Shown here: positions 84 through 50,308 of the stretch, one piece after another
Position numbering within the stretch: the stretch's first letter is position 1
Layout of the letters: each line of letters begins with the position of its first letter
Assembly (NCBI GenBank): GCA_900321605.1
Contig: ONWR01000018.1
Span: forward strand, 1-51,028
DNA length: 51,028 nt
Source: an uncultured Bacteroidales bacterium
GTDB lineage: Bacteria > Bacteroidota > Bacteroidia > Bacteroidales > Paludibacteraceae
Direction of reading: 5' to 3'
Position numbers and translations under genes: made by a program
The notes under the pieces: model-generated
What the model was told of the DNA's origin: nothing
Database searches by the model: none
What the model saw: the letters and a program-made list of their open reading frames with translations, nothing else

Positions 84-123
84 TCTAACGACCATCGACT
101 AACGACTAACGACAAACGACTAA
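84..123. repeat. Heptamer tandem repeat (ACTAACG type) in leader
   Basis: Consecutive 7-bp units accatcg, actaacg, actaacg, acaaacg, actaaat lie between the promoter and the ATG at 135. The same unit family occurs at 28671-28734, 29481-29534 and 50251-50278. Confidence 0.85.
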
Positions 124-134
124 ATAATTCTCTT

Positions 135-587
135 ATGATACAACGAATTCAGACGCTTTATTTATTGGCGATCGTGATCTTGGGCATCACGTTGTGCTTC
201 AAACCGGTAATCCAACTCGTGACACCCGAAGAAGCCGCAGAGTTGCAAGTATATGAACTGAGTGCGTTAGGTGGGGCTCCTCTTCAAGGCCTTTGGGGCT
301 TGTTGCTCACTACCGTCCTGATGCCGCTCTTGGCACTGGTGGACATCTTTCTTTATAAGAAACGTCTGCTGCAGGCACGCCTCAATATCTTCCTTGCGTT
401 GCTCTGCTTAGGCTACTACGGCGTGCTGGCGATCTATATCTGGCAGGCGAAGTTAGCGCTTGGTGTGGAGTGGAATATATTGCCGTGGGCTTCTATTCCA
501 TTGATTAACTTTGTATTAACCCTCATGGCTACGCGGCGCATCCTTAAGGATGAAGCACTCGTTCGTGCTGCCGATAGAATCCGTTAA
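135..587 (+). CDS. DUF4293 family membrane protein
   Basis: A 150-residue integral membrane protein with four predicted hydrophobic segments (about residues 8-27, 55-75, 85-105 and 115-133). It resembles the DUF4293 family, which is confined to Bacteroidetes and has no assigned function. I chose the ATG at 135, which opens MIQRIQTLYLL, the usual start of this family. The frame is open upstream to 39, but those codons only translate the promoter and the heptamer repeats. The mscS-type gene begins 3 nt after its stop, so the two are probably co-transcribed from the promoter at 39-69. Confidence 0.8.
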   Translation: MIQRIQTLYLLAIVILGITLCFKPVIQLVTPEEAAELQVYELSALGGAPLQGLWGLLLTTVLMPLLALVDIFLYKKRLLQARLNIFLALLCLGYYGVLAIYIWQAKLALGVEWNILPWASIPLINFVLTLMATRRILKDEALVRAADRIR

Positions 588-590
588 ACG

Positions 591-1592
591 ATGAATATAC
601 TGACTATTTTATTGCAAGCCCCTACGGCGGAGCAGATTCGTCAGCATCAGGATTCGCTTCGTGCTAACGCCAGACAGCTGGTCGAATTGGCAAAAGAAGA
701 CCCGGACGAGTTTCTGCATATGTCCATTCAATCGCTGGTCTCCTTTGGTATCAAGGTCTTGGCGGCGTTGGCTATTTTCTTTGTGGGCATGATGCTCCTT
801 CGTTGGGTTCGCACGTTGCTCCGTCGGCGTTTTGAGCGTCATAAGACCGAGCCTACAATCGCTTCGTTCATCATCTCGTTTGTCAATATATCCGTGGTCA
901 CCTTGTTGACCATCGTGAGCGTCAGTACCTTAGGCGTGGACACCACCTCTTTGGCAGCGCTTTTGGCAGCCGGAGGTTTGGCAATCGGAATGGCGCTCTC
1001 CGGTACCGTGCAGAATTTCGCAGGAGGACTGATGATTCTTGCCTTCAAGCCCTTTAAGGCGGGTGATTTCATAGAGGCACAAGGAACAATGGGCAAAGTG
1101 GTAGAGGTGAATATCACCGCCACCAAGATCCTCACGGTCGATAACCGCGTAGTGATCCTGCCCAATGGTGCGCTCTCTAATGGCGTGATCCATAACTACA
1201 ACGGTCGTCCTTTGCGAAGGGTAGAGTGGTCGGTCAGCGTCTCTTATGGCGTGGATGCTGCTGCTTGCAAAGCCGCTATCTTAGCGATCCTCAATAGTGA
1301 CCCGCGTGTGTTGCAGGCGGATACGGATATGAAGAAGTTGTACGACGAACTGAAAATATCCGCCTACCAGCTCTCTACCGTCAATTATCGTATGGAAGCT
1401 ATCCCTGCGCCTTTCGTAGCGCTCAAATCGCTTAACTCGAATGACATCACGTTTGTGGTGCGTGTCTGGGTACGAAGCGATGACTATTGGCCGGTCTTCT
1501 TTGACCTCCAAGAGCGTTTCTATACCGAACTTCCGCCGCAAGGCTTCACCTTTGCCTACCCGCACGTGGATGTTACGATGGTGAAGGAGTAA
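591..1592 (+). CDS. MscS-family mechanosensitive ion channel
   Basis: A 333-residue small-conductance mechanosensitive channel that would open on hypo-osmotic stress in the inner membrane. Residues 1-45 are a soluble N-terminal region. Membrane helices lie near 52-73 and 88-112. The pore-lining third helix near 118-150 is rich in Gly and Ala (LAALLAAGGLAIGMALSG). The cytoplasmic MscS beta domain follows, with FKAGDFIEAQG and VVILPNGALSNG near residues 155-205. The C-terminal alpha/beta part ends near 330. It starts 3 nt after the DUF4293 gene. A GGACAAT heptamer array begins directly after the stop codon. Family assignment is firm; ion selectivity and gating threshold cannot be inferred. Confidence 0.92.
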   Translation: MNILTILLQAPTAEQIRQHQDSLRANARQLVELAKEDPDEFLHMSIQSLVSFGIKVLAALAIFFVGMMLLRWVRTLLRRRFERHKTEPTIASFIISFVNISVVTLLTIVSVSTLGVDTTSLAALLAAGGLAIGMALSGTVQNFAGGLMILAFKPFKAGDFIEAQGTMGKVVEVNITATKILTVDNRVVILPNGALSNGVIHNYNGRPLRRVEWSVSVSYGVDAAACKAAILAILNSDPRVLQADTDMKKLYDELKISAYQLSTVNYRMEAIPAPFVALKSLNSNDITFVVRVWVRSDDYWPVFFDLQERFYTELPPQGFTFAYPHVDVTMVKE

Positions 1593-1626
1593 GGACAATG
1601 GACAATGGACAATGGACAATGGACAA
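1593..1626. repeat. GGACAAT heptamer array
   Basis: Nearly five perfect tandem copies of ggacaat start at the first base after the TAA of the mechanosensitive channel gene. No terminator-like hairpin is seen here. Confidence 0.9.
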
Positions 1627-1685
1627 AAATGATTCGACTATGAGTTGTAAACGTCCGACCGATAGTGACAAGTCTTTTGTCCTTT

Positions 1686-1720
1686 AGCGAAGCGGTCTTT
1701 ACTCTTTCAGCGAAGCGGTC
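1686..1720. repeat. AGCGAAGCGGTC repeat upstream of rlmN
   Basis: Two copies of agcgaagcggtc (1686-1697 and 1709-1720), 23 bp apart, lie just before the rlmN start. Related 16/23-bp units occur inside rlmN (1998-2051) and at the 3' end of the GH2 gene (42923-42975). Confidence 0.8.
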
Positions 1721-1733
1721 AAAAAATAAAAAT

Positions 1734-2870: not shown

Positions 2871-3371
2871 TTACATGTTGGCGTTGTAGTATTGTGGCTG
2901 ACCGGTGACTTCCTCTCCTAACCAATCCGGACGCTCAAAGGCTTCGTCTTCGTCGCTTAACTCGATCTCCGCAAGCACCCTTCCTTCCAGACGCCCGTGA
3001 AAGACATCGACTTCCCATTTGAGGCTGTCTCCTTTGTCCTTTGTCCTTTGTCCTTTGTCCTTTGACCCTTCGCCTTTCGCCTCTATGATATATCTCGTTT
3101 TGGAGATTGCACCGGGCAGGCAGATCTTCATCAGCTCTTTGGCGTCCGACAAGTCGATCTCTTTTTCCCATTCGAACTTCGCTATGCCGTCTCGAAGGAG
3201 TGAAGATTTAATAGTAAGGAACGCACGCGTGTCGCGTATGCGTACGCGAATGGTCTTCTCGGGATCTTTGCAAAGATAACCCTGCATGATTTCATAACTC
3301 GTCGTCGCTTGAGCGATAAAAGCGTCCGACTTAACCAAAAATTTTCGTTCGATTTCGGTGTTTTTTGCCAT
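2871..3371 (-). CDS. CYTH-domain protein (triphosphate tunnel metalloenzyme)
   Basis: A 166-residue CYTH protein. The N-terminal signature EIERKFLV (ExExK) and the basic/acidic pattern RVRIRD and LTIKS are typical of the tunnel that binds triphosphates with metal. Bacterial members are usually inorganic triphosphatases; adenylate cyclase activity is a less likely alternative. Residues about 96-114 are encoded by eight heptamers (3030-3085) and form a Lys/Asp/Gly-rich insert ahead of WEVDVFHG, where the family normally has a short loop. The gene converges on rlmN, with 24 nt between the stops. Its own promoter is at 3391-3421. Confidence 0.85.
   Translation of the reverse strand: MAKNTEIERKFLVKSDAFIAQATTSYEIMQGYLCKDPEKTIRVRIRDTRAFLTIKSSLLRDGIAKFEWEKEIDLSDAKELMKICLPGAISKTRYIIEAKGEGSKDKGQRTKDKGDSLKWEVDVFHGRLEGRVLAEIELSDEDEAFERPDWLGEEVTGQPQYYNANM
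3030..3085. repeat. TCCTTTG / GCCTTTC heptamer array inside the CYTH gene
   Basis: Five perfect tcctttg units (3030-3064) run into three units of a second heptamer family (acccttc, gcctttc, gcctcta). All are in the reading frame of the minus-strand gene. Confidence 0.93.
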
Positions 3372-3552: not shown

Positions 3553-3639
<87 letters not shown>

Positions 3640-3640
3640 C

Positions 3641-3665
3641 AAAAGGCACCAAGTCGGTGCCTTTT
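3641..3665 (+). terminator. Terminator of tRNA-Ser
   Basis: A 10-bp stem AAAAGGCACC / GGTGCCTTTT with a 5-nt loop and a T run, starting right after the tRNA. A near-identical copy is at 3765-3789. Confidence 0.88.
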
Positions 3666-3764
3666 TGCGTAAAGAGCGGGGTTCTTCACCCCCGGTCGGG
3701 GGTTCTTATCTCGCTACGCTCGAACGATTATTGCTTCGCAATTTTCGAATCCCCCCTCTTCCGC

Positions 3765-3789
3765 AAAAGGCACCATATCGGTGCCTTTT
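3765..3789 (+). terminator. Duplicated terminator copy
   Basis: The same AAAAGGCACC / GGTGCCTTTT stem as the tRNA terminator, with loop atatc. The stem is conserved while the loop has changed, as expected if the structure matters or the duplication is recent. Confidence 0.75.
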
Positions 3790-3870
3790 TTGCGTAAAGA
3801 GCGGGGTTCTTCACCCCCGGTCGGGGGTTCTTATCTCGCTACGCTCGAACGATTATTGCTTCGCAATTTT

Positions 3871-3990
3871 CTCCGCCGCTTCGCTCTGTCGATTATTGCA
3901 GAGCAATTTTCTCCGCCGCTTCGCTCTGTCGATTATTGCAGAGCAATTTTCTCCGCCGCTTCGCTCTGTCGATTATTGCAGAGCAATTTT
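3871..3990. repeat. Three perfect 40-bp tandem repeats
   Basis: Units 3871-3910, 3911-3950 and 3951-3990 are identical. Each contains the inverted repeat GCTCTG...CAGAGC and ends in TTTT. The array is followed by CGAATCC, the same seven bases that begin the tRNA-tail repeats. No convincing gene lies in 3640-4009. Confidence 0.93.
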
Positions 3991-4009
3991 CGAATCCATA
4001 GTAAAAGCA

Positions 4010-5400: not shown

Positions 5401-5414
5401 ATATTTTCAAATAA

Positions 5415-5505
5415 AAATGTTCCCTGAGCGCAAAATTTATCTTAACAAAATGTTCTCTGAGCGCAAAATCTTTTTTGTGCAAAATGTTCCCTGAGCGCAA
5501 AATTT
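5415..5505. repeat. Three direct repeats upstream of the AAA/DUF4143 promoter
   Basis: Three copies of TGTTCYCTGAGCGCAAAAT begin at 5418, 5451 and 5485 (spacing 33 and 34 bp), within slightly longer A/T-rich conserved flanks. They lie directly upstream of the promoter of the minus-strand ATPase gene, where operators or activator sites would be. Confidence 0.88.
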
Positions 5506-17142: not shown

Positions 17143-18333
17143 TTATTTGTTTATAGTCGATAGTAGTATTTGTTCCATTTGTTTGGTTTGTGCTTCGCGG
17201 CTGAACTCTTCACGATGCTGTGTCTGTTGGGCGGTGAAGCCGTTCTGCTCCCAAAAGCGGTAGTGCTGCAAGAGGAAAGCTTTGATAGCCTCTATATCGT
17301 CGGTAGTTCTTCCGGCGTTAGTATAGGCCATCAGTTCTGCTAACGCTCCTTGGTCGGAAGGCACGCACAGAATCGGTTTGGCGCAACCGAGTGCCTCGTA
17401 GAACTTGGTGGTCAACATGCCATGCGTGTTCGGCGAAGTGAGGACGAGCATGATACCGCTACGTCGGATAGCATCGCCCAAACGGTCGTGAGCTACCGGA
17501 TGATCTTGCGGCGTGTGGATATCCATCTGAATTCTGAAATCTGAATTCTGAAATCTGAATTCTGACTTCTGACTTCTGAAATCTGAAATCTGACTTCTGA
17601 TCTCTTCCACCGCTTGTTTGACTTTCTCCAAGGCAGGTCTTTGCCAATGGAAAAGCGATCCGATATAGGTTATGGAGAACTGCTCCGTGCGGATGTTCTC
17701 GGGGTAGAACTGCTGCTCGTCAAAACCGTTGTAGATCGTATAGACCGGTACGCTGTTGGCAGTTAGATTCCGAATGAAGTCCTTGTGCCAAGGAGAAACG
17801 GTTGTGATCGCATTGGCTGAACGCAGGACCTTATTCCGACGGCGGATATGTACAGCGCGGTAGAGACGCCTGAAAGGCATAAGCCACCATTGTTGATGCT
17901 GGTATTGGTAGCGCGAGTCATCCACTTGTTCGTCCAAATCCCGAATATCGCATATAAGCGGAACGTGAAGCGTTTGAGCTATCCGCTGTGCAGCCCCTAA
18001 CGGAAAATCACTGAAAGCCGTGCAGAGGACGAGATCAAACCCGCCATGCAGGACGGTTAGAGCTCGTTTGGCAAAAACGCGGTTGTGCCAATCGGTGAGT
18101 AGCGTCCAAACGGTCTTGACAAACCAATCGAACGTATTACCGCTGTACATACGGATCGTCTCGATAGGGTAGTTATGAGCAAAAGGCAGCGGTTCTGACG
18201 TCTCGGTCAGCAGCGTTACGGCATAGCCTTTGCGGTCCAAATAGTCGCAAAGGTATCGCAACCGAGGCAGATAGCCCGGAGCAACCGGCGGGTCAGAGAC
18301 CACTAAAATATGTGTCCTTTTGTCATTTGCCAT
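17143..18333 (-). CDS. GT4-family glycosyltransferase
   Basis: A 396-residue GT-B glycosyltransferase, probably acting in the cytoplasm on an envelope polysaccharide. The N-terminal Rossmann half has ILVVSDPPVAPGYLPR and LVLCTAFSDFPLGAA. The C-terminal half starts at FSITYIGSL and holds the nucleotide-sugar region KFYEALGCAKPILCVP, with an E-x-L-G-x-x-K-P pattern. Residues about 244-270 are a charged insert (Ser/Gln/Asp/Phe/Arg-rich) encoded by eleven TCTGAAN heptamers (17526-17602), sitting between the beta strand after the linker and the following helix. The gene overlaps the upstream deacetylase-like gene by 11 nt. Confidence 0.85.
   Translation of the reverse strand: MANDKRTHILVVSDPPVAPGYLPRLRYLCDYLDRKGYAVTLLTETSEPLPFAHNYPIETIRMYSGNTFDWFVKTVWTLLTDWHNRVFAKRALTVLHGGFDLVLCTAFSDFPLGAAQRIAQTLHVPLICDIRDLDEQVDDSRYQYQHQQWWLMPFRRLYRAVHIRRRNKVLRSANAITTVSPWHKDFIRNLTANSVPVYTIYNGFDEQQFYPENIRTEQFSITYIGSLFHWQRPALEKVKQAVEEIRSQISDFRSQKSEFRFQNSDFRIQMDIHTPQDHPVAHDRLGDAIRRSGIMLVLTSPNTHGMLTTKFYEALGCAKPILCVPSDQGALAELMAYTNAGRTTDDIEAIKAFLLQHYRFWEQNGFTAQQTQHREEFSREAQTKQMEQILLSTINK
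17526..17602. repeat. TCTGAAT/TCTGAAA heptamer array inside a glycosyltransferase
   Basis: Eleven consecutive 7-bp units, all tctgaat, tctgaaa, tctgact or tctgatc. It is the longest intragenic array in the window and is in frame on the minus strand. The same family occurs twice in the GH2 gene. Confidence 0.95.
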
Positions 18334-27097: not shown

Positions 27098-28357
27098 TTA
27101 TTCTGCTGCTTTAAAAGCTTTCTTCTGTATCTCGATAAAACGTGTGTCGGTGGTGTCCCGCATCGCTTTGGTAAGCCTCGGAACGCGAATAGGGGTACCC
27201 ACCGGTATATTACTCGGGTTGGAAATATGATCTTTGTTGGCTTCGTACAAATACGGCCAATAGATCTTGTCTCCGTAGTGCTTCTTGGCTATCCAAGTCA
27301 AACGGCTACCCGGTGTGATCTCTTCGGTCAACAGAATATCGTCAAAACGCCATGTGTCAGCCGTTTTCGGTTGCTCTGTCGTTGTGGGCTTAACCTCTTT
27401 CGGTTCTTCTGCTATTACTTGTTCTTGCTGTTCTTCCTCTTGTTCTGCAACTTCCGGATTAACCGATACAGAATCAGCATGTTGTCCATATATTGGTTCT
27501 TTATATCCCGCTTCTGTTTCGATAGATTCGATCTCAACTCTTTGCTTTGTAATCTCTTCTAACCAGCTACTCAACTGACTCTTCATGAAGAAATAACCGG
27601 TAAAGAGCAGCATCAGCAATAGTACAACGCAGATGAGTATATCTCGTACAAAATGATACTTCTTTTTCTCTTTCGGTCTCTCGACTTCCACTTCCGGCTC
27701 CGGTTGCGGTTTCTCTATCACAGGTTCCGGCTCTGGTTCTACCACAGGTTCCGACTCCGGTTCAACCACCGGCTCCGGTTCCGGTTCTACCACCGGTTCC
27801 GGTTCTGGTTCTACCACCGCTTGCGGTTCCTCTACCACAGGCTCCGGTTCTTTTACCTCCGGCTCCGGTTCCGGCTCTACCACCGCTTCGGAACTCTCCC
27901 CCTCTATGGGGGAGTCGGAGGGGGTTATCGGACTCTGTCCCAATTCGCCGAGAATATCCACAATCTCCTCTGCTTGAGCGCCGAGTTTCTGTATCGGATC
28001 CATCTCCTTTGCCTCTAACCCTTCGCCATTAGCCTCTAACCCTTCGCCTTTAGCCTTTATTTCGCCGCTTTTTTCGACTAACTCCTTCACTCCTGCTTCG
28101 GGCATAAAGGCAATCTTGTTATATCCTTCGATAATAATCTCTTCTCCTGTCGTCACGTTCACGCTCTTACGCGCAGCAACAGCTTGCAAACGGAAGATAC
28201 CCAAACCGTTGATCTTCACCTGCTTATCGACTTTCAGAGCTTCTATCAACTGTGCATTGAAAGCGCTCAGAAAAAGGTTTGCCTCTTTCTCGCTAACACC
28301 GGCACGAGTAGCTAACGCGCGGCGCAATTCGGTCCAACTGAGTTTGTTTTCTGCCAT
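27098..28357 (-). CDS. HU-domain protein with transmembrane segment and LysM domain
   Basis: A 419-residue protein with an unusual order of parts. Residues 1-95 are an HU/IHF-like DNA-binding domain (WTELRRALATRAGVSEKEAN; KINGLGIFRL). Residues 99-118 are a Lys/Glu/Gly/Leu insert encoded by heptamers. Residues 142-156 come from a GC-rich palindrome. Residues 158-225 are a Pro-Glu-Val repeat. Residues about 237-257 form one membrane helix after a KEKKK stop, which places the N-terminus inside. Residues about 345-395 are a LysM domain (ITPGSRLTWIAKKHYGDKIYW). The architecture would tie DNA to peptidoglycan through the inner membrane. It lies 2 nt from the HU gene and 0 nt from uvrA. Confidence 0.85.
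   Translation of the reverse strand: MAENKLSWTELRRALATRAGVSEKEANLFLSAFNAQLIEALKVDKQVKINGLGIFRLQAVAARKSVNVTTGEEIIIEGYNKIAFMPEAGVKELVEKSGEIKAKGEGLEANGEGLEAKEMDPIQKLGAQAEEIVDILGELGQSPITPSDSPIEGESSEAVVEPEPEPEVKEPEPVVEEPQAVVEPEPEPVVEPEPEPVVEPESEPVVEPEPEPVIEKPQPEPEVEVERPKEKKKYHFVRDILICVVLLLMLLFTGYFFMKSQLSSWLEEITKQRVEIESIETEAGYKEPIYGQHADSVSVNPEVAEQEEEQQEQVIAEEPKEVKPTTTEQPKTADTWRFDDILLTEEITPGSRLTWIAKKHYGDKIYWPYLYEANKDHISNPSNIPVGTPIRVPRLTKAMRDTTDTRFIEIQKKAFKAAE
27896..27924. repeat. GC-rich palindrome inserted in the HU-LysM gene
   Basis: CTCCCCC-TCTAT-GGGGGAG (27896-27914) followed by tcggaggggg. It reads in frame as a Ser/Pro/Glu-rich segment. It looks like a REP-type element; its CCCC...GGGG style also resembles the hairpin at 5659-5672. 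Confidence 0.7.
28007..28062. repeat. Heptamer array (CTTCGCC/TCTAACC) in the HU-LysM gene
   Basis: Eight 7-bp units: ctttgcc, tctaacc, cttcgcc, attagcc, tctaacc, cttcgcc, tttagcc, tttattt. They encode residues 99-118, between the HU domain and the rest of the protein. Confidence 0.9.
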
Positions 28358-28638: not shown

Positions 28639-28670
28639 ATTGTGTTTCTTATCTTTTCTTATATTTTAGG

Positions 28671-28734
28671 ACTATCGACTAACGACTATCGACAGCCCTT
28701 GCATGGACTAACGACTAACGACTATCGACCAACG
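28671..28734. repeat. ACTAACG/ACTATCG heptamers at the end of rimO
   Basis: Two blocks of 7-bp units (28671-28691 and 28706-28734) are separated by agcccttgcatgg-like sequence. The second block supplies the last codons (VVGR) and the TAG stop of rimO. Confidence 0.88.
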
Positions 28735-30146
28735 ACTTCTCCATAAAGGTCAAACTCTTCCGCCTTCGTGATCTCTACATTATAGAACTCTCCGACTTTC
28801 AACTCCTCCACTTCTTTCAACTCTAAACTTTCAACTCTCAACTTTTCTATTAGTACTTCGCAATCCACCTCAGGGCTGTCGAATTGCGTCCTGCCAATAA
28901 AATACTCGCCTTCTTTACGGTCGATCACCACGCGCTGAACCGTTCCCACTAACCGTTGCATCAACTCGCCGCTGATACCTTGCTGAATAGCCATCAGTTC
29001 CTCCACGCGTCTCTCTTTCACTTCTTGCGGGATGTCGTCTTTATAGTGTTTGTTAGCGTACGTGCCTTCTTCGTCCGAGTAAGCAAAACAGCCCATACGC
29101 TCAAATCGCATCTCTTTCACCCACGACTTCAGCTCCTCAAAATCCTCCTCTGTCTCGCCCGGATGTCCTACTAAAAGGGTCGTGCGTATACATATGCCCG
29201 GTACGCGCTCGCGTATTTTATGAATGAGTGCATCCTGCTCCGCACGTGTGATATGCCTTCTCATCAGCCCCAACATGTGATCCGTGCAATGCTGCAAAGC
29301 GATATCGAGGTATTTGCACACATTCTTATGTTTCGACATCACATCGAGCAGTCCTTCCGGAAAATCAGTCGGGTACGCGTAGTGCAGCCGGATCCATTCC
29401 ACACCCTCTATCTGTGCCATTTGGTCTATCAGTTCCGGCAGTAAATGTCTTCTCTGATGGCTAACGGATGATGTTTTGGAACTATCGACCAACGACGAAC
29501 GACTATCGACCAACGACGAATGACCATCGACCAAATCGAGCCCATAGCTACTCAAGTCCTGTGCAATCACGTTGATCTCTTTCACCCCTTGCTTGACTAA
29601 CCATCGTACCTCGTCCAGTATCTCCTCCATCGGTCGGCTTGTATGCCTTCCTGTGATCAGCGGTATAGCGCAGTACGAGCACATCCGGTTGCAACCCTCG
29701 CTGATTTTCAGATAAGCATAATGTCCCGGCGTCGTCAGTTTCCGCTCTATCCACTTACAACTTTCAACTCTCGAACTTCTTTCAACTTTCAACTTTAAAC
29801 TTTCAACTATTTTGAGAAAATCGAATTTTCCAAAATATTCATCCACTTCCGGCATCTCCGCCTCCAACTCTGCTCTATATCGTTCGCTCAGGCATCCCAT
29901 GACGATCAGTTTCCGCAGTTTGCCTTTCTTCTTCCGCTCCGCCATCTGGAGAATCATATTGATACTCTCTTCTTTGGCATCGCCGATGAATCCGCAGGTA
30001 TTGATCACGCACACTTCCCCTTTTGGTTCTTTAGGGTCATGTACACACGTCCATCCTGCGGCTTCCAACTGTCGCATCACTCGCTCTGCATCTACCAGAT
30101 TCTTCGAGCATCCCAACGTTATAAAATCAACTACGCCTTTTTGCAT
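28722..30146 (-). CDS. rimO: Ribosomal protein S12 methylthiotransferase RimO
   Basis: A 474-residue radical SAM enzyme that adds a methylthio group to Asp of ribosomal protein S12. N-terminal UPF0004 cysteines are C13 (LGCSKNLVD), C51 (INTCGFI) and C85. Radical SAM cysteines are C152, C156 and C159 (GCNRMCSYCAIP). The S12-type start and ITGRHTSRP separate it from MiaB. A C-terminal TRAM domain (RVVIDRKEGEYFIGRT) is present. It is about 35-40 residues longer than typical. Three heptamer-encoded stretches account for this: residues about 113-131, 206-227 and 431-452. The last codons are also repeat-derived. Core motifs are intact. Confidence 0.95.
   Translation of the reverse strand: MQKGVVDFITLGCSKNLVDAERVMRQLEAAGWTCVHDPKEPKGEVCVINTCGFIGDAKEESINMILQMAERKKKGKLRKLIVMGCLSERYRAELEAEMPEVDEYFGKFDFLKIVESLKLKVERSSRVESCKWIERKLTTPGHYAYLKISEGCNRMCSYCAIPLITGRHTSRPMEEILDEVRWLVKQGVKEINVIAQDLSSYGLDLVDGHSSLVDSRSSLVDSSKTSSVSHQRRHLLPELIDQMAQIEGVEWIRLHYAYPTDFPEGLLDVMSKHKNVCKYLDIALQHCTDHMLGLMRRHITRAEQDALIHKIRERVPGICIRTTLLVGHPGETEEDFEELKSWVKEMRFERMGCFAYSDEEGTYANKHYKDDIPQEVKERRVEELMAIQQGISGELMQRLVGTVQRVVIDRKEGEYFIGRTQFDSPEVDCEVLIEKLRVESLELKEVEELKVGEFYNVEITKAEEFDLYGEVVGR
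28796..28846. repeat. CTTTCAA heptamers, 3' part of rimO
   Basis: Units of ctttcaa, ctctaaa, ctttcaa, ctctcaa with imperfect neighbours encode a Leu/Glu/Lys/Val-rich segment inside the TRAM region. Confidence 0.82.
29481..29534. repeat. ACTATCG/ACCAACG heptamers, middle of rimO
   Basis: Seven and a half units (actatcg, accaacg, acgaacg, actatcg, accaacg, acgaatg, accatcg, accaa) encode residues about 206-227, following SSYGLDL in the radical SAM domain. Confidence 0.94.
29754..29815. repeat. CTTTCAA heptamers, 5' part of rimO
   Basis: Units cttacaa, ctttcaa, ctctcga and then ctttcaa, ctttcaa, ctttaaa, ctttcaa encode residues about 111-131, between the UPF0004 and radical SAM domains. Confidence 0.88.
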
Positions 30147-39483: not shown

Positions 39484-39500
39484 TAACTGCGAAAAAAGAT

Positions 39501-39528
39501 ATTAATTATTCATTATTAATTATTCATT
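39501..39528. repeat. ATTAATT/ATTCATT heptamers before susD
   Basis: Four 7-bp units lie between susC and susD and end four bases before the susD start codon. The same family is between galK and galM (46491-46520). Confidence 0.85.
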
Positions 39529-39531
39529 AAT

Positions 39532-42922: not shown

Positions 42923-42975
42923 CGGTCTGTACTCTGTCAGTGAAACGGTCTGTATTCTGTCAGCGTTAGCGGTCT
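42923..42975. repeat. 23-bp repeats of the CGGTCTGT family at the GH2 3' end
   Basis: cggtctgtactctgtcagtgaaa (23 bp), a 24-bp variant, then cggtct. These are the rlmN 16-bp units extended by seven bases. The array supplies the last codons and TAA of the GH2 gene. Confidence 0.88.
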
Positions 42976-45440
42976 ATTCGAAAACTTCCCTTGGAATGTT
43001 TCCGAACAATAAACGTGCATTGACCTGCGAACGCGTGCATCTGCGGTTCTACAAAACTGTCCAGACATGCAGCATCGCCGTTAGCAGCTGCTACAAATCC
43101 TTCGCCTTCATAGCGAATGACGTTATTGGCATTCGGGCAGAGATGACCGTCTTTATCTACCACGCGCACGGTGTAGTAGCATAACTCCTCCGGTTGCTCT
43201 TTCTCGTTTGCCCAAACCACCTCTACATGATCCGGCTCTCCGGCAGTGTAGATCTTCTCACGTGCTGCCTCTTTGCCCTCTGCGTCATAAGCGACCACTT
43301 CTATCTCGCCTTGCTCAAACGGCACATCGAACCACATCAGTCGGTAACGGGGCAATAACTCCGGTCTCGGTGCCGAACCCCAAACAGGAATCTCAAACTG
43401 ACCCACTTTCGGCATCTCGCTCACATTAGCCTCTAACCGTTCGCCTTTCGCCATCTGCTCTGCCTCTTCTTTCGTTGCATGACGCAGTTTGCCGTAACTC
43501 TTACCGTTAACAAACAGCTCTGCCTGAGGATAACTCGTATAGCAGAAGACAGGCACAAGATCGCCTTCCTTCCAGTTCCAGTGCGGCAACAGATGCAAAG
43601 TGGCGTCCTCTTTGTTCCACTGACTGCGATACAGCCAATAACGGTCTTTGGGCAGCGAAGCCAAGTCGATTATTCCGAAATAGCTGCTATGACTGGGCCA
43701 TGCGTCCGTATCGTACGGAGAGGGTTCGCCTAAGTAATCAAAACCTGTCCAGACAAACTGTCCGAGCGTCCAATCATAATCGTCCTGCAACTGAAAATCC
43801 TGCTCCGGTAGTCCCGACCATGCGCAGTACTCGAGGTCATAACCCGAAGACTGCTGATCCTCGTAGAGCGCGTCCGGCTGAATGAGGGCAGGGATCTTAT
43901 ATACCCCTCGGCTGGAGACGGTAGAAGCCGTTTCGGAGCCTAAGATCATCTTCTGCGGCAGGTTCTCGTAACCCTCTATATACCGTCCTGTACGGTAGTT
44001 GAAACCCGGTATCTCCACCGCTGCACCAAACCCGTTGTGGATCACGTGCATCGCTTGATCCATGCCGTTCGTTACCGGACGGGTGGGGTCGAGTTGATGG
44101 AACAACTCCTGTAACTTCGTGACAATCTCAATACCGTCCGGCAGCACTTGGTTCCAAACCTCGTTACCGCTCGACCAAAGCATCACAGAAGCGTTGTTGC
44201 GGTAGTGCTTCACCATGTTGGTGATGTCCCATTTCCACCAGTCGTCGAACTCCACGCTGTAGTCATTCTCCGTCTTGCCGTGGTTCCATACATCGAAAGG
44301 CTCGATCATCATCATCATTCCCATCTCGTCGCAGAGCTCTACGAGTTCCGGAGCCGGCATGTTATGACTGGTGCGGATAGCGTCGCAACCCATCTCTTTG
44401 AGCATCGTGATCTGGTGCTTAAGGGCGTCCTTATGCACCGCTGCACCCAAGGGACCTAAGTCATGGTGGTTGCACACACCCTTGAACTTACGGGTCTGAC
44501 CGTTGAGCTGGAACCCCTTCTCGGCGGTGTAGCTGATAGACCGGATACCGAAACGCGTCTCTACCTCATCAAGCAGTTCTTCGCCCTTCAGCACTTTCGT
44601 ACGTGCAACATATAGATTTGGCGTCTCCGGACTCCAAAGATGCGGTTTCGCCACTTGCGTTTGCCCCTCTTGACCTTCTATCGTGGCTACCACCTTGCCG
44701 TCATAGAGTATGTCGGTCTGAATTCTGAAATCTGAATCCTGAATTCTAATCTCCTCCACGCCATCTTGCAACTCCACCTCTATCGTTACCGTAGCTTGGT
44801 CCTTTTTAACTTCCGGAGTGCGCACTAACACGCCGAAGGTCGGTATATGAATCGGGTTCGTTTCTACCAGATGTACGTTTCTGTACAGACCGGCACCCGG
44901 GTACCAACGGCTCTGCTGCGGTTTGTTCTCCAAATAGACATCAATGGTCACCTCTGAACTCTGATCTCTGAATTCTGAATTCTCTATCAGTTGCGGCAAA
45001 ATATAGCAGTCAAAGGTGTTGTACCCGTACGGCCAATAGACCATCTCTTCGCCGTTCACATAGACGTCGGCATGACTCATCGCGCCGTCAAAAACGAGGG
45101 TGTAGAACTTCTCTTTGTTCACTTTCACCTTCGTGCGGTAGTGTCCTTTGCCCATCCATGGGAGACCACCGCTACGTCCTGTTTTCCACGTCGGTTCTTT
45201 CTCGCCGTTCTGCACCACGATCACCTCTTGCAGGTCGTTCGCACGGTCGAAAGGACCGCTGATTGCCCAGTCATGCGGGATCGTGACCTCTTGCCAAACG
45301 GGGTTCTCCGTGGTGTCTTGGGTAAACTGCCACTGACGAATCAGTGTATCCGTACGGACAGATTGCTTATCCGTACAAGCATAAAACACCATGCTACTGA
45401 TCAGCAGCATGGTATAAAGAATATATGATTTACCTTTCAT
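42966..45440 (-). CDS. Glycoside hydrolase family 2, beta-galactosidase-like lipoprotein
   Basis: An 824-residue lipoprotein (signal MKGKSYILYTMLLISSMVFY, then AC) of family GH2. The N-terminal sugar-binding domain has WQEVTIPHDWAISGPFD and GGLPWMGKGHYR. The catalytic TIM barrel starts near residue 300. The acid/base Glu is in MLWSSGNEVWNQ and the nucleophile Glu in LGSETASTVSSRG. A DUF4982-type domain and a C-terminal Ig-like domain follow. Three heptamer inserts lie at residues about 152-163, 231-242 and 662-673. The last three codons come from another repeat. Position after galM and galK supports beta-galactosidase activity feeding galactose metabolism. Confidence 0.9.
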   Translation of the reverse strand: MKGKSYILYTMLLISSMVFYACTDKQSVRTDTLIRQWQFTQDTTENPVWQEVTIPHDWAISGPFDRANDLQEVIVVQNGEKEPTWKTGRSGGLPWMGKGHYRTKVKVNKEKFYTLVFDGAMSHADVYVNGEEMVYWPYGYNTFDCYILPQLIENSEFRDQSSEVTIDVYLENKPQQSRWYPGAGLYRNVHLVETNPIHIPTFGVLVRTPEVKKDQATVTIEVELQDGVEEIRIQDSDFRIQTDILYDGKVVATIEGQEGQTQVAKPHLWSPETPNLYVARTKVLKGEELLDEVETRFGIRSISYTAEKGFQLNGQTRKFKGVCNHHDLGPLGAAVHKDALKHQITMLKEMGCDAIRTSHNMPAPELVELCDEMGMMMMIEPFDVWNHGKTENDYSVEFDDWWKWDITNMVKHYRNNASVMLWSSGNEVWNQVLPDGIEIVTKLQELFHQLDPTRPVTNGMDQAMHVIHNGFGAAVEIPGFNYRTGRYIEGYENLPQKMILGSETASTVSSRGVYKIPALIQPDALYEDQQSSGYDLEYCAWSGLPEQDFQLQDDYDWTLGQFVWTGFDYLGEPSPYDTDAWPSHSSYFGIIDLASLPKDRYWLYRSQWNKEDATLHLLPHWNWKEGDLVPVFCYTSYPQAELFVNGKSYGKLRHATKEEAEQMAKGERLEANVSEMPKVGQFEIPVWGSAPRPELLPRYRLMWFDVPFEQGEIEVVAYDAEGKEAAREKIYTAGEPDHVEVVWANEKEQPEELCYYTVRVVDKDGHLCPNANNVIRYEGEGFVAAANGDAACLDSFVEPQMHAFAGQCTFIVRKHSKGSFRIDR
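43424..43458. repeat. CTTTCGC/CTCTAAC heptamers in the GH2 gene
   Basis: Units cattagc, ctctaac, cgttcgc, ctttcgc, catctgc encode residues about 662-673. Confidence 0.82.
44717..44751. repeat. TCTGAAT heptamers in the GH2 gene, copy A
   Basis: tctgaat, tctgaaa, tctgaat, cctgaat, tctaatc encode residues about 231-242, in a surface region of the N-terminal beta domains. Confidence 0.87.
44953..44987. repeat. TCTGAAT heptamers in the GH2 gene, copy B
   Basis: tctgaac, tctgatc, tctgaat, tctgaat, tctctat encode residues about 152-163, directly before the conserved VTIDVYLEN segment. Confidence 0.87.
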
Positions 45441-45442
45441 TC

Positions 45443-45477
45443 GTAATTCTTAATTCTTAATTTTTAATTTTTAATTA
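45443..45477. repeat. TTAATTT heptamers between galM and the GH2 gene
   Basis: Five 7-bp units (gtaattc, ttaattc, ttaattt, ttaattt, ttaatta) fill nearly the whole gap and provide the TAA of galM. Confidence 0.92.
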
Positions 45478-46485
45478 CAGAAATCGGTATTCGGTGGTTT
45501 CGTCTAATTTCTCTCCGGGCATCAGAACGACATTCGGGAAATCGTCATGGTGAACGCTGTCCGGCCAGTTTTGTGCTTCCAGACATACGGCATGTTGGAT
45601 GTCGTACATCGAGCCGCTTTTGCCTTCATGCTGCTCGATCCAGTTGCCGGTATAGACCTGCAAACCTTTCATCGTCGTCCAGCACTCCATCGTCCGTCCG
45701 TCAGCCTGTAAGGTCGCCGCATGACGCAACTCTTTCGGCGCATCGGCTGCGCAGAGACACCAGTTGTTGTCTATGCCTCGCCAAACCTCAAAGAACTTAT
45801 CGTGCATCCTGTCTCCCAGACGAACCGGTTGACGGAAATCCATCGGTGTGCCCTCTACGTCCTTGATCTCGCCGGTCGGACAGGTGAACTCGTCAAACGG
45901 CGTGTACCGGTCTGCGAATACCTGAAGCACATGGTCGTCCACCGTTCCGCTGCCCTCACCTGCAAGGTTGAAGTACGCGTGGTTGGTCATTGCTACCAGG
46001 GTGGGGGCATCGGTCTTCGCTTCGTAGTGAATAACGAGACGGTTGTCTTTGGTCGCCGTATAGGTCACCCATACGTCCAGATTGCCGGGATAACCCTCCT
46101 CGCCGTCCTTGGAGCGGTAGTGCAGCTTGATCTCATAGATGCTTTGTTCCACCACCTCCCACATCTTGGCGTTGAAACCCTCGATGCCGCCATGCAGACT
46201 GTTCGGACCGTTGTTGATGGGCAGTTTATAAACTTTCAACTTTCCACTTTCATCTTTCAACTCAAACACTCCTCCCTTGATGCGGTTCGCTACTCGTCCG
46301 CAGATAGCATTGAAATAGGTCTCTTGGGTACGCCATTCGTCCGCGGTACGGAAGCCAAGAACAATGTCCTTGACTTCCCCTTTGCGGTTTGCGACCAGCA
46401 GTTTGGTGATCTTTGCCCCGAGATTCGAGATCTCCACTTTCAACCCACCACTGCTCTTAATTGTATAAAACTGAATCGGTTTCAC
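45475..46485 (-). CDS. galM: Aldose 1-epimerase (galactose mutarotase)
   Basis: A 336-residue cytoplasmic mutarotase that interconverts alpha and beta galactose before GalK acts. Motifs: NGPNSLHGGIEGFNAKMW, the catalytic His in MTNHAYFNLAGEG, DRYTPFDEFTCPTGEI, and the late catalytic Glu in CLEAQNWPDS. Residues about 74-85 (Glu/Lys/Ser-rich, between GVFELKDE and YKLPINNG) are encoded by CTTTCAA heptamers (46233-46267). It is the middle gene of the operon, 37 nt after galK. Confidence 0.95.
   Translation of the reverse strand: MKPIQFYTIKSSGGLKVEISNLGAKITKLLVANRKGEVKDIVLGFRTADEWRTQETYFNAICGRVANRIKGGVFELKDESGKLKVYKLPINNGPNSLHGGIEGFNAKMWEVVEQSIYEIKLHYRSKDGEEGYPGNLDVWVTYTATKDNRLVIHYEAKTDAPTLVAMTNHAYFNLAGEGSGTVDDHVLQVFADRYTPFDEFTCPTGEIKDVEGTPMDFRQPVRLGDRMHDKFFEVWRGIDNNWCLCAADAPKELRHAATLQADGRTMECWTTMKGLQVYTGNWIEQHEGKSGSMYDIQHAVCLEAQNWPDSVHHDDFPNVVLMPGEKLDETTEYRFL
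46233..46267. repeat. CTTTCAA heptamers inside galM
   Basis: Units ctttcaa, ctttcca, ctttcat, ctttcaa, ctcaaac. It is the same family as the two CTTTCAA arrays in rimO. Confidence 0.88.
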
Positions 46486-46490
46486 GAAAT

Positions 46491-46520
46491 ATTAATTATT
46501 AATTATTCATTATTAATTAT
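46491..46520. repeat. ATTAATT/ATTCATT heptamers between galK and galM
   Basis: Four 7-bp units fill the 37-nt spacer between the two genes, stopping three bases short of the galK stop. Confidence 0.88.
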
Positions 46521-46522: not shown

Positions 46523-47728
46523 TCACGCAAGGCGTGTTACTCCGTCTCCAATCTCCGCTACATAGAAATCTGCCTTGAGTCCGGTTTTCTTCTCGTACTC
46601 GGCGCCTACGAACGCTTTGAAATGCTCGATGGCTTCCTCTTTGACGAGGCTCACGGTGCAACCACCGAAACCGCCTCCGGTCATACGGCTTCCGAGAACA
46701 CCCTCTACCTGCCAAGCGGCTTCAGCAAGAGCGTCCAACTCCGGACCGGTCACTTCGTAGTCATCGCGCAGCGACACATGACTGGCGGTCATCAGTTCAC
46801 CGAAATAAGCGATCTCACCTTTCTTGAGCGCCTCTACAGCAGCTGCCGTACGGGCTACTTCGCCTACCACGTGACGCGCACGTTTCTTAGCTATCGGGTC
46901 GGTGATAGCGCTCTCTACTTGTGCCCAGTCTTCTTCTGTCAGTTCGGCAAGGAACTTGATCGGTTTCACTTTGCTGATCTGCTCTACAGCCGTGTGGCAT
47001 TGACGTACACGGTCGTTATACGCACCGCTGTCCAAGTGGTGAGGACTATGGGTATTGCTGATCACTACTTTGATGCCCTCTAATTTCACGGGTACGTGCT
47101 CGAACTCTAAGGTGTCGCAGTTGAGGTAGATAGCATGATCTTTCTTGCCCTGCGCCGAAGCGAACTGATCCATCACACCGCACATCACGCCTGCGTACTC
47201 ATGCTCGCAAGCTTGACCGATGAGTGCCAACTCCGTGCGATATTTTTTCTCGCTCTCCGGTCCGCTCATCCACTCATCCACTAATCCTTTCATCATCTCC
47301 TCTGTAAACGCGCGCGCAGTAACCACTTCCATTGCGGCACTACTGCTCAGACCGGCTCCTGCAGGTACGTTACCGTAGTACAACAGGTCATAACCGCTCT
47401 CCAATTTAGCCTCCGGATGACGGCGGGCGATGATGTCAATACAGCCTAAAGCGTAGTTGCACCATGCGCGATCTGCCTGCGGTTTGATTTCTGAAATTGG
47501 AATACTGTAAGTCTGCTCCATGTTCAGCGATTTGAAGCGCAGTACGCCGTCCTCATTCTTACTCATCAGCAGCCATGCACCAAAACTCAATGCGCAGGGG
47601 AACACACAACCACCATTGTAGTCGGTGTGCTCGCCGATGAGGTTTACTCGTCCCGGGGAAAAAAACATCTTCTCTGCTTTACGACCGTATGCTTGTTCGA
47701 AAGCAGCATTCATCTCTTGTGTTGTCAT
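46523..47728 (-). CDS. galK: Galactokinase
   Basis: A 401-residue GHMP kinase phosphorylating galactose to galactose-1-phosphate in the Leloir pathway. The galactokinase signature is GRVNLIGEHTDYNGG near residue 28. The GHMP ATP loop is GNVPAGAGLSSSAAMEV near 118. The C-terminal motif is GSRMTGGGFGGCTVSLV. I start at ATG 47728 (MTTQEMNAAFEQAYG). The frame stays open upstream to 47899, but that stretch contains the promoter at 47767-47797. Residues about 145-155 (LVDEWMSGPES region) come from four octamer units (47265-47296) not expected in the family. It is the first gene of galK-galM-GH2. Confidence 0.96.
   Translation of the reverse strand: MTTQEMNAAFEQAYGRKAEKMFFSPGRVNLIGEHTDYNGGCVFPCALSFGAWLLMSKNEDGVLRFKSLNMEQTYSIPISEIKPQADRAWCNYALGCIDIIARRHPEAKLESGYDLLYYGNVPAGAGLSSSAAMEVVTARAFTEEMMKGLVDEWMSGPESEKKYRTELALIGQACEHEYAGVMCGVMDQFASAQGKKDHAIYLNCDTLEFEHVPVKLEGIKVVISNTHSPHHLDSGAYNDRVRQCHTAVEQISKVKPIKFLAELTEEDWAQVESAITDPIAKKRARHVVGEVARTAAAVEALKKGEIAYFGELMTASHVSLRDDYEVTGPELDALAEAAWQVEGVLGSRMTGGGFGGCTVSLVKEEAIEHFKAFVGAEYEKKTGLKADFYVAEIGDGVTRLA
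47265..47296. repeat. CTCATCCA octamers inside galK
   Basis: Units ctcatcca, ctcatcca, ctaatcct, ttcatcat total 32 nt. It is the same octamer family as the recQ leader. Gain or loss of one unit would shift the galK frame. Confidence 0.9.
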
Positions 47729-49300: not shown

Positions 49301-49605
49301 TTTTCTTTTCTTTAGCGCTCTGCGCTATGCCGCTCATGTATGCGGCGGATACCAAACCGGCTAAGCCCCAAACAGAGACCACCAAGCAGTCTAATAAACG
49401 CACGGTGGTGCTCCATTGTGATCTGCATTGCCAAGGTTGTTGTGATAAGATCATGAAGAATATTGCTTGGGAGAAAGGCGTCAAGGATCTCGTCTGTGAT
49501 CTCCAAAAGAAGACCGTTACCGTGACCTACGATACCCGCAAAACGGATCTGGAGACCCTTCTCAAAGCCTTCGAAAAAATCGGCAAACCCGCTACCTTGT
49601 TGTAA
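49282..49605 (+). CDS. Exported heavy-metal-associated (HMA) domain protein
   Basis: A 107-residue protein with a signal peptide (MDNSKLIFFSLALCAMPLMY, cleaved near AA) followed by an HMA fold. The metal site lies in LHCDLHCQGCCDKIMKNI, a GxxCxxC-like arrangement with an extra Cys. The beta-alpha-beta end is KTVTVTYDTRKTDLETLLKAFEKIG. It would bind copper or a similar soft metal in the periplasm, as a chaperone or part of a partner system not seen here. I start at ATG 49282, overlapping the hemolysin III gene. Confidence 0.85.
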   Translation: MDNSKLIFFSLALCAMPLMYAADTKPAKPQTETTKQSNKRTVVLHCDLHCQGCCDKIMKNIAWEKGVKDLVCDLQKKTVTVTYDTRKTDLETLLKAFEKIGKPATLL

Positions 49606-49645
49606 TTAAAATTGGTACGAGAAATGGCACTCCGATTATCTGAAG

Positions 49646-50033
49646 TTAAAAGAGAGGCACCATATATAATGGTAGATAACGTATATCTCCGTCTATTCGG
49701 CTATCTGATGCATGTACAACAGTAGGTGAGGTAACGAACTCGCCGAATTTGCGCACACATTTCTGCAAAGATGTAATCGTATACCCCGATGACGATTTAG
49801 CTTCGATAGGAATGATGTTATGCCGCGAGGTGATTGTGTCTTTGCGAATCAGAAAATCAATCTCCATGCGGTTAGTGGCATCCAATGAGGATATAAGAGG
49901 TATATTCGTTTTTAGCAAATTCCTCTACGATATAGCTCTTGCCTATACGTCTTGCGCCTTCAATCAATAGTGCTACTTCACCTTTTCGGGTGTTTTTCCA
50001 ATCTAATAACTGGCTGTAAATCTTGCGTTTCAT
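49646..50033 (-). pseudogene. AAA/DUF4143 ATPase gene, internally deleted
   Basis: A relic of a gene like that at 4010-5347. From ATG 50033 the first about 48 codons read MKRKIYSQLLDWKN, then ALLIEGARRIGKSYIVEEFA and NEYTSYI, aligning with the N-terminus and Walker A of the intact copy. The frame then breaks (ILIGCH-stop) near 49895. In another frame the sequence continues as RMEIDFLIRKD, IIPIEAKSSSGYT and YLPLYMVPLF, aligning with the C-terminus of DUF4143. About 300 codons including Walker B are missing. Promoter and leader repeats remain upstream. ATP binding alone could persist, but a functional protein is unlikely. Confidence 0.88.
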
Positions 50034-50042
50034 AATCTATCA

Positions 50043-50123
50043 TACACATTTTCTAAGACTACAAAAGTGCGTTTCAATACACATTTTCGAGGACTACGAA
50101 ATAGTGTTTCAATACACATTTTC
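50043..50123. repeat. Three 35-bp direct repeats in the leader of the AAA/DUF4143 relic
   Basis: TACACATTTTC starts copies at 50043, 50078 and 50113, exactly 35 bp apart, with well conserved sequence between (AGGACTACRAAA and GTTTCAA segments). On the minus strand they lie between the promoter (50139-50169) and the start codon, so they would be transcribed into the 5' leader. Confidence 0.92.
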
Positions 50124-50138
50124 GACCTTTTGACGCTG

Positions 50139-50169
50139 CAAAGGTACTACTTTTATTTGAAATAACCAA
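50139..50169 (-). promoter_or_regulatory. Promoter of the AAA/DUF4143 relic
   Basis: Minus strand TTG (50169-50167) and TACCTTTG (50146-50139), spacer 20, still intact although the gene is broken. Confidence 0.82.
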
Positions 50170-50250
50170 ATTTTTAGGTAAAAAAGTGTAGATTTATACG
50201 AATTGTGCTAATTAATCATCTTTCCATCGTACATTTTTTTCGATTTTTGG

Positions 50251-50308
50251 ACCATCGACTAACGACCAACGACTGCATTTTTAATTCTTAATTTTTAATT
50301 TTTAATTG
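50251..50308. repeat. ACTAACG then TTAATTT heptamers
   Basis: accatcg, actaacg, accaacg, actgcat (50251-50278), followed by ttaattc, ttaattt, ttaattt, ttaattg to 50308, ending just before the promoter at 50315. It is the same order of two families as at the start of the window. Confidence 0.9.

What the first reader, a model, noticed from the sequence alone, without database searches (positions are those of the whole stretch)
84..50308. Heptanucleotide tandem repeats pervade both spacers and coding regions
At least eight unrelated 7-bp unit families occur (ACTAACG, GGACAAT, TCCTTTG, CTTTCGC/CTCTAAC, TCTGAAT, CTTTCAA, TTAATTT, ATTAATT). Different sequences keep the same unit length, and related arrays recur at several unlinked sites. 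This points to a mechanism that generates or selects 7-bp periodicity rather than descent from one element. Short heptamer repeats (STRR) are known in cyanobacteria; here many lie inside conserved genes.
Basis: partly seen in the sequence, partly recalled or inferred. Interest (0 to 1): 0.8.

Follow-up and report, generated by a model that had tools for sequence, protein, structure and literature searches.

The report
Seven-base repeats invading conserved genes
An uncultured gut bacterium carries many short stretches of DNA in which a seven-letter word is repeated, with favourite words that differ between species, and these stretches sit between genes, at gene ends and inside the loops of ordinary enzymes, which makes it a good system for asking why bacteria make repeats of exactly this length.

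Summary
In 631 kb of the window's genome, exact 7-bp tandem runs number 105 against 0.67 in shuffles; periods 5, 6, 8, 9 give 2, 12, 25, 10. The host is a rumen-type Bacteroidales (Paludibacteraceae), not a cyanobacterium. Of 112 arrays (median 34 bp), 44 lie inside coding sequence, 34 touch a gene end, 34 are intergenic. Inside genes they encode mostly hydrophilic loops: one lengthens an aldose-epimerase turn that is short in all 29 relatives compared; others lie in RimO and a family-2 glycosidase. Orthologous sites are mostly empty or hold another unit (with caveats). Units form species 'dialects': two arrays of one genome share a unit about 10 to 54 times more often than 7-mer frequencies predict. 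Density was 40 to 258 per Mb in four congeners and zero in 188 kb of two sister genera. Best reading: arrays growing by 7-nt slippage, with units also spreading within a genome, kept where tolerated; the spread is inferred. Dispersed heptamer repeats are known in other phyla; many-family invasion of enzyme loops makes this a new variant of a known kind.

The parts
18..35 (.). heptamer array TTTTAAT x2.6
   Evidence: exact run
89..123 (.). heptamer array CGACTAA x5, inside called ORF 39-587 (+)
1593..1626 (.). heptamer array GGACAAT x4.9, starting at the 3' end of the MscS-type gene 591-1592
3030..3082 (.). heptamer array TCCTTTG x5 running into CCTTTCG-like units, inside the CYTH-domain gene 2871-3371 (-)
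17526..17600 (.). heptamer array TCTGAAT/TCTGAAA/TCTGACT x10.7, inside glycosyltransferase gene 17143-18333 (-)
28006..28059 (.). degenerate heptamer array (21-bp repeat GCCTCTAACCCTTCGCCATTA x2.2), in the linker after the HU-like domain of gene 27098-28357 (-)
   Evidence: linker variable among 67 aligned sequences
28670..28736 (.). heptamer arrays GACTATC/GACTAAC, spacer plus 3' end of rimO; the unit supplies the rimO stop codon (CTA at 28722-28724)
28722..30146 (-). rimO-like gene (UPF0004, radical SAM, TRAM domains) carrying in-frame heptamer arrays at three loops
28814..28845 (.). heptamer array CTTTCAA/CTCTAAA in the TRAM loop of rimO (aa about 434-444)
29486..29533 (.). heptamer array CGACCAA/CGACGAA/CGACTAT in rimO (aa about 205-220); no equivalent insert in the T. 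maritima RimO sequence of 4jc0
29753..29808 (.). heptamer array CTTTCAA in rimO (aa about 113-131)
39500..39529 (.). heptamer array TATTAAT/TATTCAT, intergenic
42966..45440 (-). glycoside hydrolase family 2 gene with two heptamer-derived loops
44717..44747 (.). heptamer array TCTGAAT in the GH2 gene
44952..44983 (.). heptamer array CTCTGAA/TTCTGAA in place of the loop TGDS or similar that 11 close relatives have
45439..45476 (.). heptamer array ATTCTTA/ATTTTTA, gap between GH2 and epimerase genes, overlapping the epimerase 3' end by 2 bases
45475..46485 (-). aldose 1-epimerase gene
46231..46262 (.). heptamer array AACTTTC lengthening a short turn (mostly LDGx) of the epimerase; not in any of the 29 relatives compared
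46487..46520 (.). heptamer array TATTAAT, intergenic
50256..50307 (.). two adjacent heptamer arrays, CGACTAA then ATTTTTA, intergenic

Best explanation
These are short tandemly repeated heptanucleotide arrays (STRR-like) produced by a lineage-specific tendency to duplicate DNA in 7-nt steps, as in replication slippage. Step 1 (supported by sequence patterns, not observed directly): arrays grow by adding neighbouring 7-nt copies that then mutate. Step 2 (inferred): unit sequences are also passed between loci of one genome, most plausibly by short-homology template switching or ectopic conversion between arrays, which gives each species its own set of units and makes neighbouring arrays alike. 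Step 3 (supported): purifying selection removes most copies in coding DNA. What survives lies in spacers, at gene ends where a stop-bearing unit simply ends the frame, and in loops of proteins where the sense strand is open, hydrophilic and in frame; there similarity tends to recur at 21 nt, three units (borderline). No function of the arrays as such is claimed.
For: Period 7 in excess. In the 29 of 70 non-coding arrays of 35 bp or more, identity falls steadily with lag (0.867, 0.818, 0.788, 0.750 at 7, 14, 21, 28), as expected of neighbour-by-neighbour duplication. In the 44 of 108 coding arrays of that length lag 21 (0.847) exceeds lag 14 (0.802), but the bootstrap interval of the difference just includes zero (-0.004 to 0.098). 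Placement of 112 own arrays: 44 in CDS against 93.9 by random placement, 26 over 3' ends and 8 over 5' ends against 3.2 for both. 108 coding arrays: mean hydropathy -0.74 in sense, +0.37 if read antisense, proteome -0.19; 62 of 108 would have a stop if reversed. Low-confidence segments of the RimO model overlap the three array sites (205-231 fully; 120-137 and 442-445 partly). Dialects: the chance that two arrays share the main unit is 0.039, 0.033, 0.055, 0.011 within own, G002, G035, G017; 0.002-0.027 between genomes; 0.001 for random 7-mers. Neighbours share units: under 300 bp apart 17 of 39 pairs within one mismatch, against 1333 of 9437 on other contigs; permutation P for pairs under 1 kb 0.039 (own) and 0.001 (G035). 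Empty orthologues share slightly longer words with the resident unit than with other units (mean rank 0.69, 21 arrays).
Against: Spread in trans was not seen happening; no closely related strain pair was available. The seed test also fits purely local birth, and at least one case in it (array 121, shared word of 9) is probably an undetected degenerate array; part of the effect may be base composition. The excess at gene ends is partly forced, because a stop-bearing array inside a gene tail necessarily ends the ORF. Gene calls are my own hexamer-based calls. The CGAC family lies in sense orientation to its gene in 20 of 25 own-genome arrays with an assignable strand, which a neutral model does not predict. 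The 21-nt recurrence in coding arrays is borderline. G035 shows some flank sharing, so part of the unit sharing there may be ordinary segmental duplication.
Confidence: 0.55

Rival explanations
1. Purely local slippage: every array is born at its site from a chance partial repeat, with 7 nt favoured by the polymerase or fork geometry, and no exchange between loci. Shared units would reflect composition and selection only.
For: Lag profile of non-coding arrays, seed signal, and the polymerase-footprint idea of the 2007 SSR survey as cited in PMC4692102.
Against: Unit sharing within genomes is about 10 to 54 times the 7-mer frequency null and differs between congeners (GC 43.5-51%); the pattern CGACYAACGACYAACGAC has 114 overlapping matches in the own genome, 194 in G283, and none in 125 of 151 genus genomes.
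Confidence: 0.27
2. Functional sites: arrays are kept as binding sites for an RNA- or DNA-binding regulator or as all-frame stop cassettes, as proposed for TAACTGA repeats upstream of starts in Beggiatoaceae.
For: 26 of 112 arrays straddle gene 3' ends; CGAC family sense-oriented in 20 of 25.
Against: 44 of 112 lie inside CDS; units are many and change between species; 25 of 32 coding arrays with a scored orthologue had only orthologues scored empty (an overcount in part); the largest single unit class AAAAATT runs both ways in co-directional spacers (3 sense, 5 antisense, four genomes pooled).
Confidence: 0.1
3. Arrays are remnants or cargo of a mobile element (REP/RAYT, MITE) or products of a reverse transcriptase with a repeat template.
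For: Other dispersed short repeats, including palindromes, occupy the same RimO loops in relatives. Some flank sharing in G035.
Against: Own genome (94.9% complete) has no match to Y1 transposase PF01797 or reverse transcriptase PF00078; G035, the densest of the four sampled, has one borderline Y1 match and no RT, while the one RT is in G002, the sparsest; own-genome flanks are not shared.
Confidence: 0.05
4. Assembly or binning artefact.
For: All sequences here are MAG data.
Against: Own arrays are 22 to 84 bp, shorter than usual reads (read length recalled, not checked); frames stay open; homologous arrays recur in RimO of MAGs from different projects and hosts, e.g. L003 goat, L016 dairy cattle, L021 red deer, L037 RUG.
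Confidence: 0.02

Closest known systems
Cyanobacterial STRR heptanucleotides and the degenerate 7-nt repeats of the Nostoc trnL intron P6b loop (passages of PMC4476775; STRR itself from search listings and recall)
   Same: Degenerate 7-nt units in tandem; gain or loss of 7-nt units; repeated shifts from one unit class to the other at one site in Nostoc
   Different: Other phylum; many more unit families in one genome here and many arrays inside protein genes
TAACTGA direct repeats of Beggiatoaceae, cyanobacteria and five Bacteroidetes (PMC4679880: abstract, sections 10 and 15 read)
   Same: Heptamer arrays, patchy between genomes, some over stop codons, indels mostly in 7-nt steps between two Cyanothece strains; Paludibacter propionicigenes has two sets
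   Different: In the Beggiatoaceae genome one unit dominates and most sets lie just upstream of starts; ORF cases lie mostly at protein ends (one exception in an RNA-polymerase-like ORF). Here tens of units and internal enzyme loops
Geobacter metallireducens heptamer elements GGGACCG (49 places) and MTYCTGA (passages of PMC2700814)
   Same: Dispersed heptamer arrays between and within genes; MTYCTGA includes this window's unit ATTCTGA
   Different: A few conserved families annotated as regulatory elements; replacement of enzyme loops not mentioned in the passages seen
Xanthomonas GGGAATC and Nostoc GGGGAYT repeats (passages of PMC4692102)
   Same: Dispersed degenerate heptamers, varying in length and sequence between close relatives
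   Different: G-rich, studied as intergenic quadruplex-forming families
Tandem repeats of archaeal Borgs (passages of PMC9879509)
   Same: About half in ORFs, genome-specific, rapid independent origin, disordered peptides
   Different: In Borgs, unit lengths within ORFs are divisible by three; here the unit stays 7 nt inside genes

Membership tests
STRR-type heptanucleotide repeats | unit of 7 nt in tandem, in excess of other periods | tested here: met
STRR-type heptanucleotide repeats | dispersed at many loci, with degenerate units | tested here: met
   112 arrays in 631 kb
STRR-type heptanucleotide repeats | cyanobacterial host (as originally defined; recalled) | tested here: not met
   nearest named relatives are Bacteroidales/Paludibacteraceae MAGs
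TAACTGA repeats | unit TAACTGA (class AACTGAT) | tested here: not met
   not among the 53 exact-run unit classes of the 27% own-genome sample; one array of that class in G035
TAACTGA repeats | mostly just upstream of start codons, in one orientation | tested here: not met
   8 of 112 touch a 5' end, 44 in CDS, 26 over 3' ends; distances of intergenic arrays to starts not tabulated
Borg-type ORF tandem repeats | unit length divisible by three in ORFs | tested here: not met
   unit 7 nt in 44 own CDS arrays
REP/RAYT elements | Y1 transposase (RAYT) in the genome | tested here: not met
   0 matches in own genome
REP/RAYT elements | conserved element sequence beyond the repeat unit | tested here: not met
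   own flank identity 0.268 against 0.259 background; G035 0.285 against 0.251 with one duplicated pair or more; palindromic ends not scanned
Rickettsia-type in-frame palindromic elements (recalled; search listing only) | in-frame insertion in conserved genes at tolerant positions | tested here: met
Rickettsia-type in-frame palindromic elements (recalled; search listing only) | the insert is a palindromic element | tested here: not met
   inserts considered here are tandem heptamers; palindromes do occur at the same RimO loops in relatives

The most novel reading that the evidence does not exclude
An unidentified process, using neither a Y1 transposase nor a reverse transcriptase, copies heptamer units from array to array within a genome, so that many unlinked arrays, including protein-coding loops, drift together towards species-specific units. 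Loops of conserved enzymes would then be rewritten in concert by a non-coding repeat process. A possible example is the GH2 loop: the window has AATTCAG, AATTCAG, AGATCAG, AGTTCAG and G034 (L160) has CAGTCAG, CAATCAG, CGATCAG, CAATCAG in the same register and length (28 of 36 bases identical), with first base A in all four units of one and C in all four of the other. Against this example: the G034-type unit is not frequent in G034 (4 overlapping matches at two other places), while the window-type unit has 9 in the own genome and none in G034.
Probability: 0.25. Interest if true: 0.85.

Novelty: new variant of a known kind. Interest (0 to 1): 0.6.

Why it matters
Over-representation of heptamers in bacteria was noted in 2007 (as cited in PMC4692102), with a polymerase-footprint suggestion; the passages I saw report no test of it. 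Four genomes of one genus span 40 to 258 arrays per Mb and samples of two sister genera have none, so the cause (polymerase, repair or recombination gene) can be sought by comparing genomes. It also shows a route by which slippage supplies new loops of conserved enzymes: because 7 is not a multiple of 3, a stop-free unit gives the same seven-residue peptide cycle in every frame.

Tried and rejected
Variable positions two apart in the unit (pattern of four fixed, N, fixed, N): 49, 29, 28 of 106 arrays with exactly two variable columns lie at circular distance 2, 1, 3; with the stricter rule 19, 12, 12 of 43, and arrays are not independent. Not claimed.

Replication-strand orientation of the CGAC family: neighbouring sites on one contig mostly share a strand (20 of 25 pairs among the 100 listed of 193 matches), but beyond 3 kb it is 13 of 18, and orientation follows GC skew only weakly (r = -0.34, n = 27). 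Not claimed.

Mini-hairpin GCGNAGC as a companion of arrays: mildly over-represented in the own sample (520 against a mean of 271 and a maximum of 480 for permuted controls) but not near arrays (14 of 520 against 11 of 623 controls). Dropped.

The reversed-pattern control is no control, since reversed CAACTTTC is the same repeat; that happens to be the own-genome CGACTAA unit (39 matches in own, 7 in G035, 5 in G015, 0 in six others).

CYTH gene comparison: 38 of 41 genomes have the gene, but loci could not be cut, so its array was not checked in relatives. The glycosyltransferase array had too few homologues (5 sequences including the window). Epimerase: 36 relatives had a match, 29 were compared.

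caveats: the 'no array' count (173 of 192 segments) is too high at RimO site 205, where segments were cut short (compare); degenerate arrays below my threshold are missed; orthologues under 60% flank identity were dropped (e.g. array 125, whose orthologue carries the same unit at 52%). Of 108 CDS arrays 87 had usable flanks, 37 found any orthologue, 32 entered the count. The 110 RimO sequences include some species twice, from two collections (e.g. L011 and L084).

Papers: none was read whole. PMC4679880: abstract and sections 10 and 15. Passages only: PMC4692102, PMC9879509, PMC6749651, PMC2700814, PMC4476775, PMC12699852. The 2007 PNAS SSR survey is not held. That heptamer invasion of Paludibacteraceae genes is not in print rests only on searches (listings of the best few, not all papers found).

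Full report
What is there. The window is bases 1-51,028 of contig C31 of a 2.32-Mb MAG, 94.9% complete. Its nearest named relatives by the RimO protein are rumen and gut Paludibacteraceae/Bacteroidales MAGs. TRF lists 20 rows of period 7 in the window. With exact runs, period 7 gives 13 in the window, other periods from 4 to 13 none to three. In 41 pieces of the same genome (630,992 bp, 27%) period 7 gives 105 runs, local shuffles 0.67; periods 8 and 11 give 25 each, 6 and 9 give 12 and 10, 5 gives 2. A mismatch-tolerant definition finds 112 arrays, 177.5 per Mb, median 34 bp, 0.66% of the sequence.

Distribution. Per Mb: own 177.5, G002 40, G035 258, G017 80, all one genus, from 313 to 631 kb each. 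The 58 named Paludibacteraceae/Bacteroidales loci L002-L059 together give 107, but the six of them with RimO identity 70-75% (71 kb) give none. There were 0 in 100 kb of G081 and 88 kb of G191 (same family, other genera), and 0 in 349 kb of 22 Bacteroidaceae and other loci (one array there by the exact-run count). Elsewhere in the order one array type (CAACTTTC) occurs in 10 of 198 genomes, the own one included, so such arrays are patchy rather than unique to the genus.

Dialects. The chance that two arrays of one genome have the same main unit is 0.039, 0.033, 0.055 and 0.011 (own, G002, G035, G017); between genomes 0.002 to 0.027; from genome 7-mer frequencies 0.001. The own genome favours AACGACT/AACGACC and AAAAATT; G035 favours AAAAATT, AATAATG and AAAGGTG. 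CGACYAACGACYAACGAC has 114 overlapping matches in the own genome and 194 in G283; 125 of 151 genus genomes have none. TTCAGAATTCAGAA has 9 matches in the own genome, 8 in G015 and none in seven other congeners.

Placement. With home-made gene calls (439 genes, 85% coding), 44 of 112 arrays lie in CDS, 26 over a 3' end, 8 over a 5' end, 34 between genes; random placement gives 93.9, 3.2 (both ends) and 14.9. In rimO the stop codon is part of a CGATAGT unit on the coding strand. A stop-bearing array necessarily ends an ORF, so the end excess is partly forced. In four genomes, 39 of 42 arrays at 3' ends have a stop in the sense strand; of 108 arrays in CDS the consensus unit has stops only antisense in 39, only sense in 16, both in 11, neither in 42. 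Coding arrays encode hydrophilic peptides on average (hydropathy -0.74; +0.37 if reversed; proteome -0.19).

Conserved genes. RimO: 110 sequences were aligned. Inserts of 6 or more residues occur at three places in 39, 27 and 15 of them. A period-7 signal is seen at these places in 17, 19 and 35 of 110 (whether or not the insert reaches 6 residues), against 69 of 1799 80-nt tiles over the whole genes. Units at one place differ between species (GGACAAA, GTACAAT, AAAGTCG, TCAGCCG, AAAGGTG, CGACCAA); other inserts are palindromes or other repeats. T. maritima RimO (4jc0) has no counterpart of residues 206-231. A model of the window protein has pLDDT under 50 at 205-231 and, partly overlapping the other two array sites, at 120-137 and 442-445; it is also low at 159-166, which is no array site. 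Aldose epimerase: all 29 relatives compared have a short turn where the window has an AACTTTC array and five more residues. GH2: the window and L160 carry heptamer loops where 11 close relatives have TGDS or similar; 13 distant ones have other short loops, and L165 is not covered there (27 sequences). In a wider census, 32 coding arrays from four genomes had an orthologue with at least 60% flank identity: 25 had only orthologues scored empty, 5 only a different unit, 2 mixed (caveats under Tried and rejected).

How it works. Non-coding arrays (29 of 70 long enough) lose identity steadily with lag, as neighbour duplication predicts; coding arrays (44 of 108) regain it at 21 nt, the shortest lag that keeps both unit and frame, but only at borderline strength. 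Arrays close together share units more often (17 of 39 pairs under 300 bp within one mismatch; 1333 of 9437 on other contigs). Flanks are not shared between same-family arrays of the own genome; in G035 they are slightly, with at least one duplicated pair. The own genome has no match to the Y1 transposase and reverse transcriptase families tried. I therefore favour slippage in 7-nt steps plus exchange of units between arrays, followed by purifying selection. The growth pattern and selection in genes are supported by sequence; exchange is inferred. Local birth alone is the main rival: empty orthologues share slightly longer words with the resident unit than with other units (mean 4.6 against 4.0, mean rank 0.69, n = 21).

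Known background. Heptamer excess is reported for many bacteria, with a polymerase-footprint suggestion (PMC4692102, passages). TAACTGA repeats (PMC4679880, abstract and two sections), Geobacter elements (PMC2700814, passages), Nostoc trnL repeats with repeated unit shifts (PMC4476775, passages) and Borg repeats in ORFs (PMC9879509, passages) are the closest cases I found; a survey of prokaryote satellites mentions abundant families derived from heptamers (PMC6749651, passages). The present case differs by the number of unit families in one genome, the species dialects, and repeated replacement of internal enzyme loops by units not divisible by three.

Noticed in passing
window 33091-33151 and 47261-47287: 8-bp arrays (CTCATCCA, TCCACTCA). 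Period-8 arrays run at 35-42 and period-11 arrays at 25-27 per Mb in own, G002 and G035 alike (14 and 11 in G017), while period 7 varies sixfold. The galactokinase 8-mer insert is shared with L310.
   Followed up: partly
window 3620-3991: 125-bp unit twice and 40-bp unit 3.5 times, starting at the end of a tRNA-Ser gene (3553-3640).
   Followed up: no
window 27714-27883: 24-bp repeats (about 7 copies) in the tail of an HU-like DNA-binding gene.
   Followed up: no
window 5414-5512 and 50042-50125: 33-bp and 35-bp tandem repeats in spacers.
   Followed up: no
L012, L013, L020, L045, L083 (RimO loci): REP-like palindromes (ccggatgccatccgg), hairpins and other dispersed repeats inserted in frame at the same RimO loops that take heptamers in other species.
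   Followed up: partly
window 17526-17600, 44717-44983: Unit ATTCTGA is one form of the MTYCTGA heptamer reported in Geobacter metallireducens (PMC2700814): convergence or shared bias across phyla.
   Followed up: no
own-genome CGAC family, e.g. window 89-123: Sense-oriented to its gene in 20 of 25 arrays, not explained by stop codons since the CGACTAA unit has them on both strands.
   Followed up: partly
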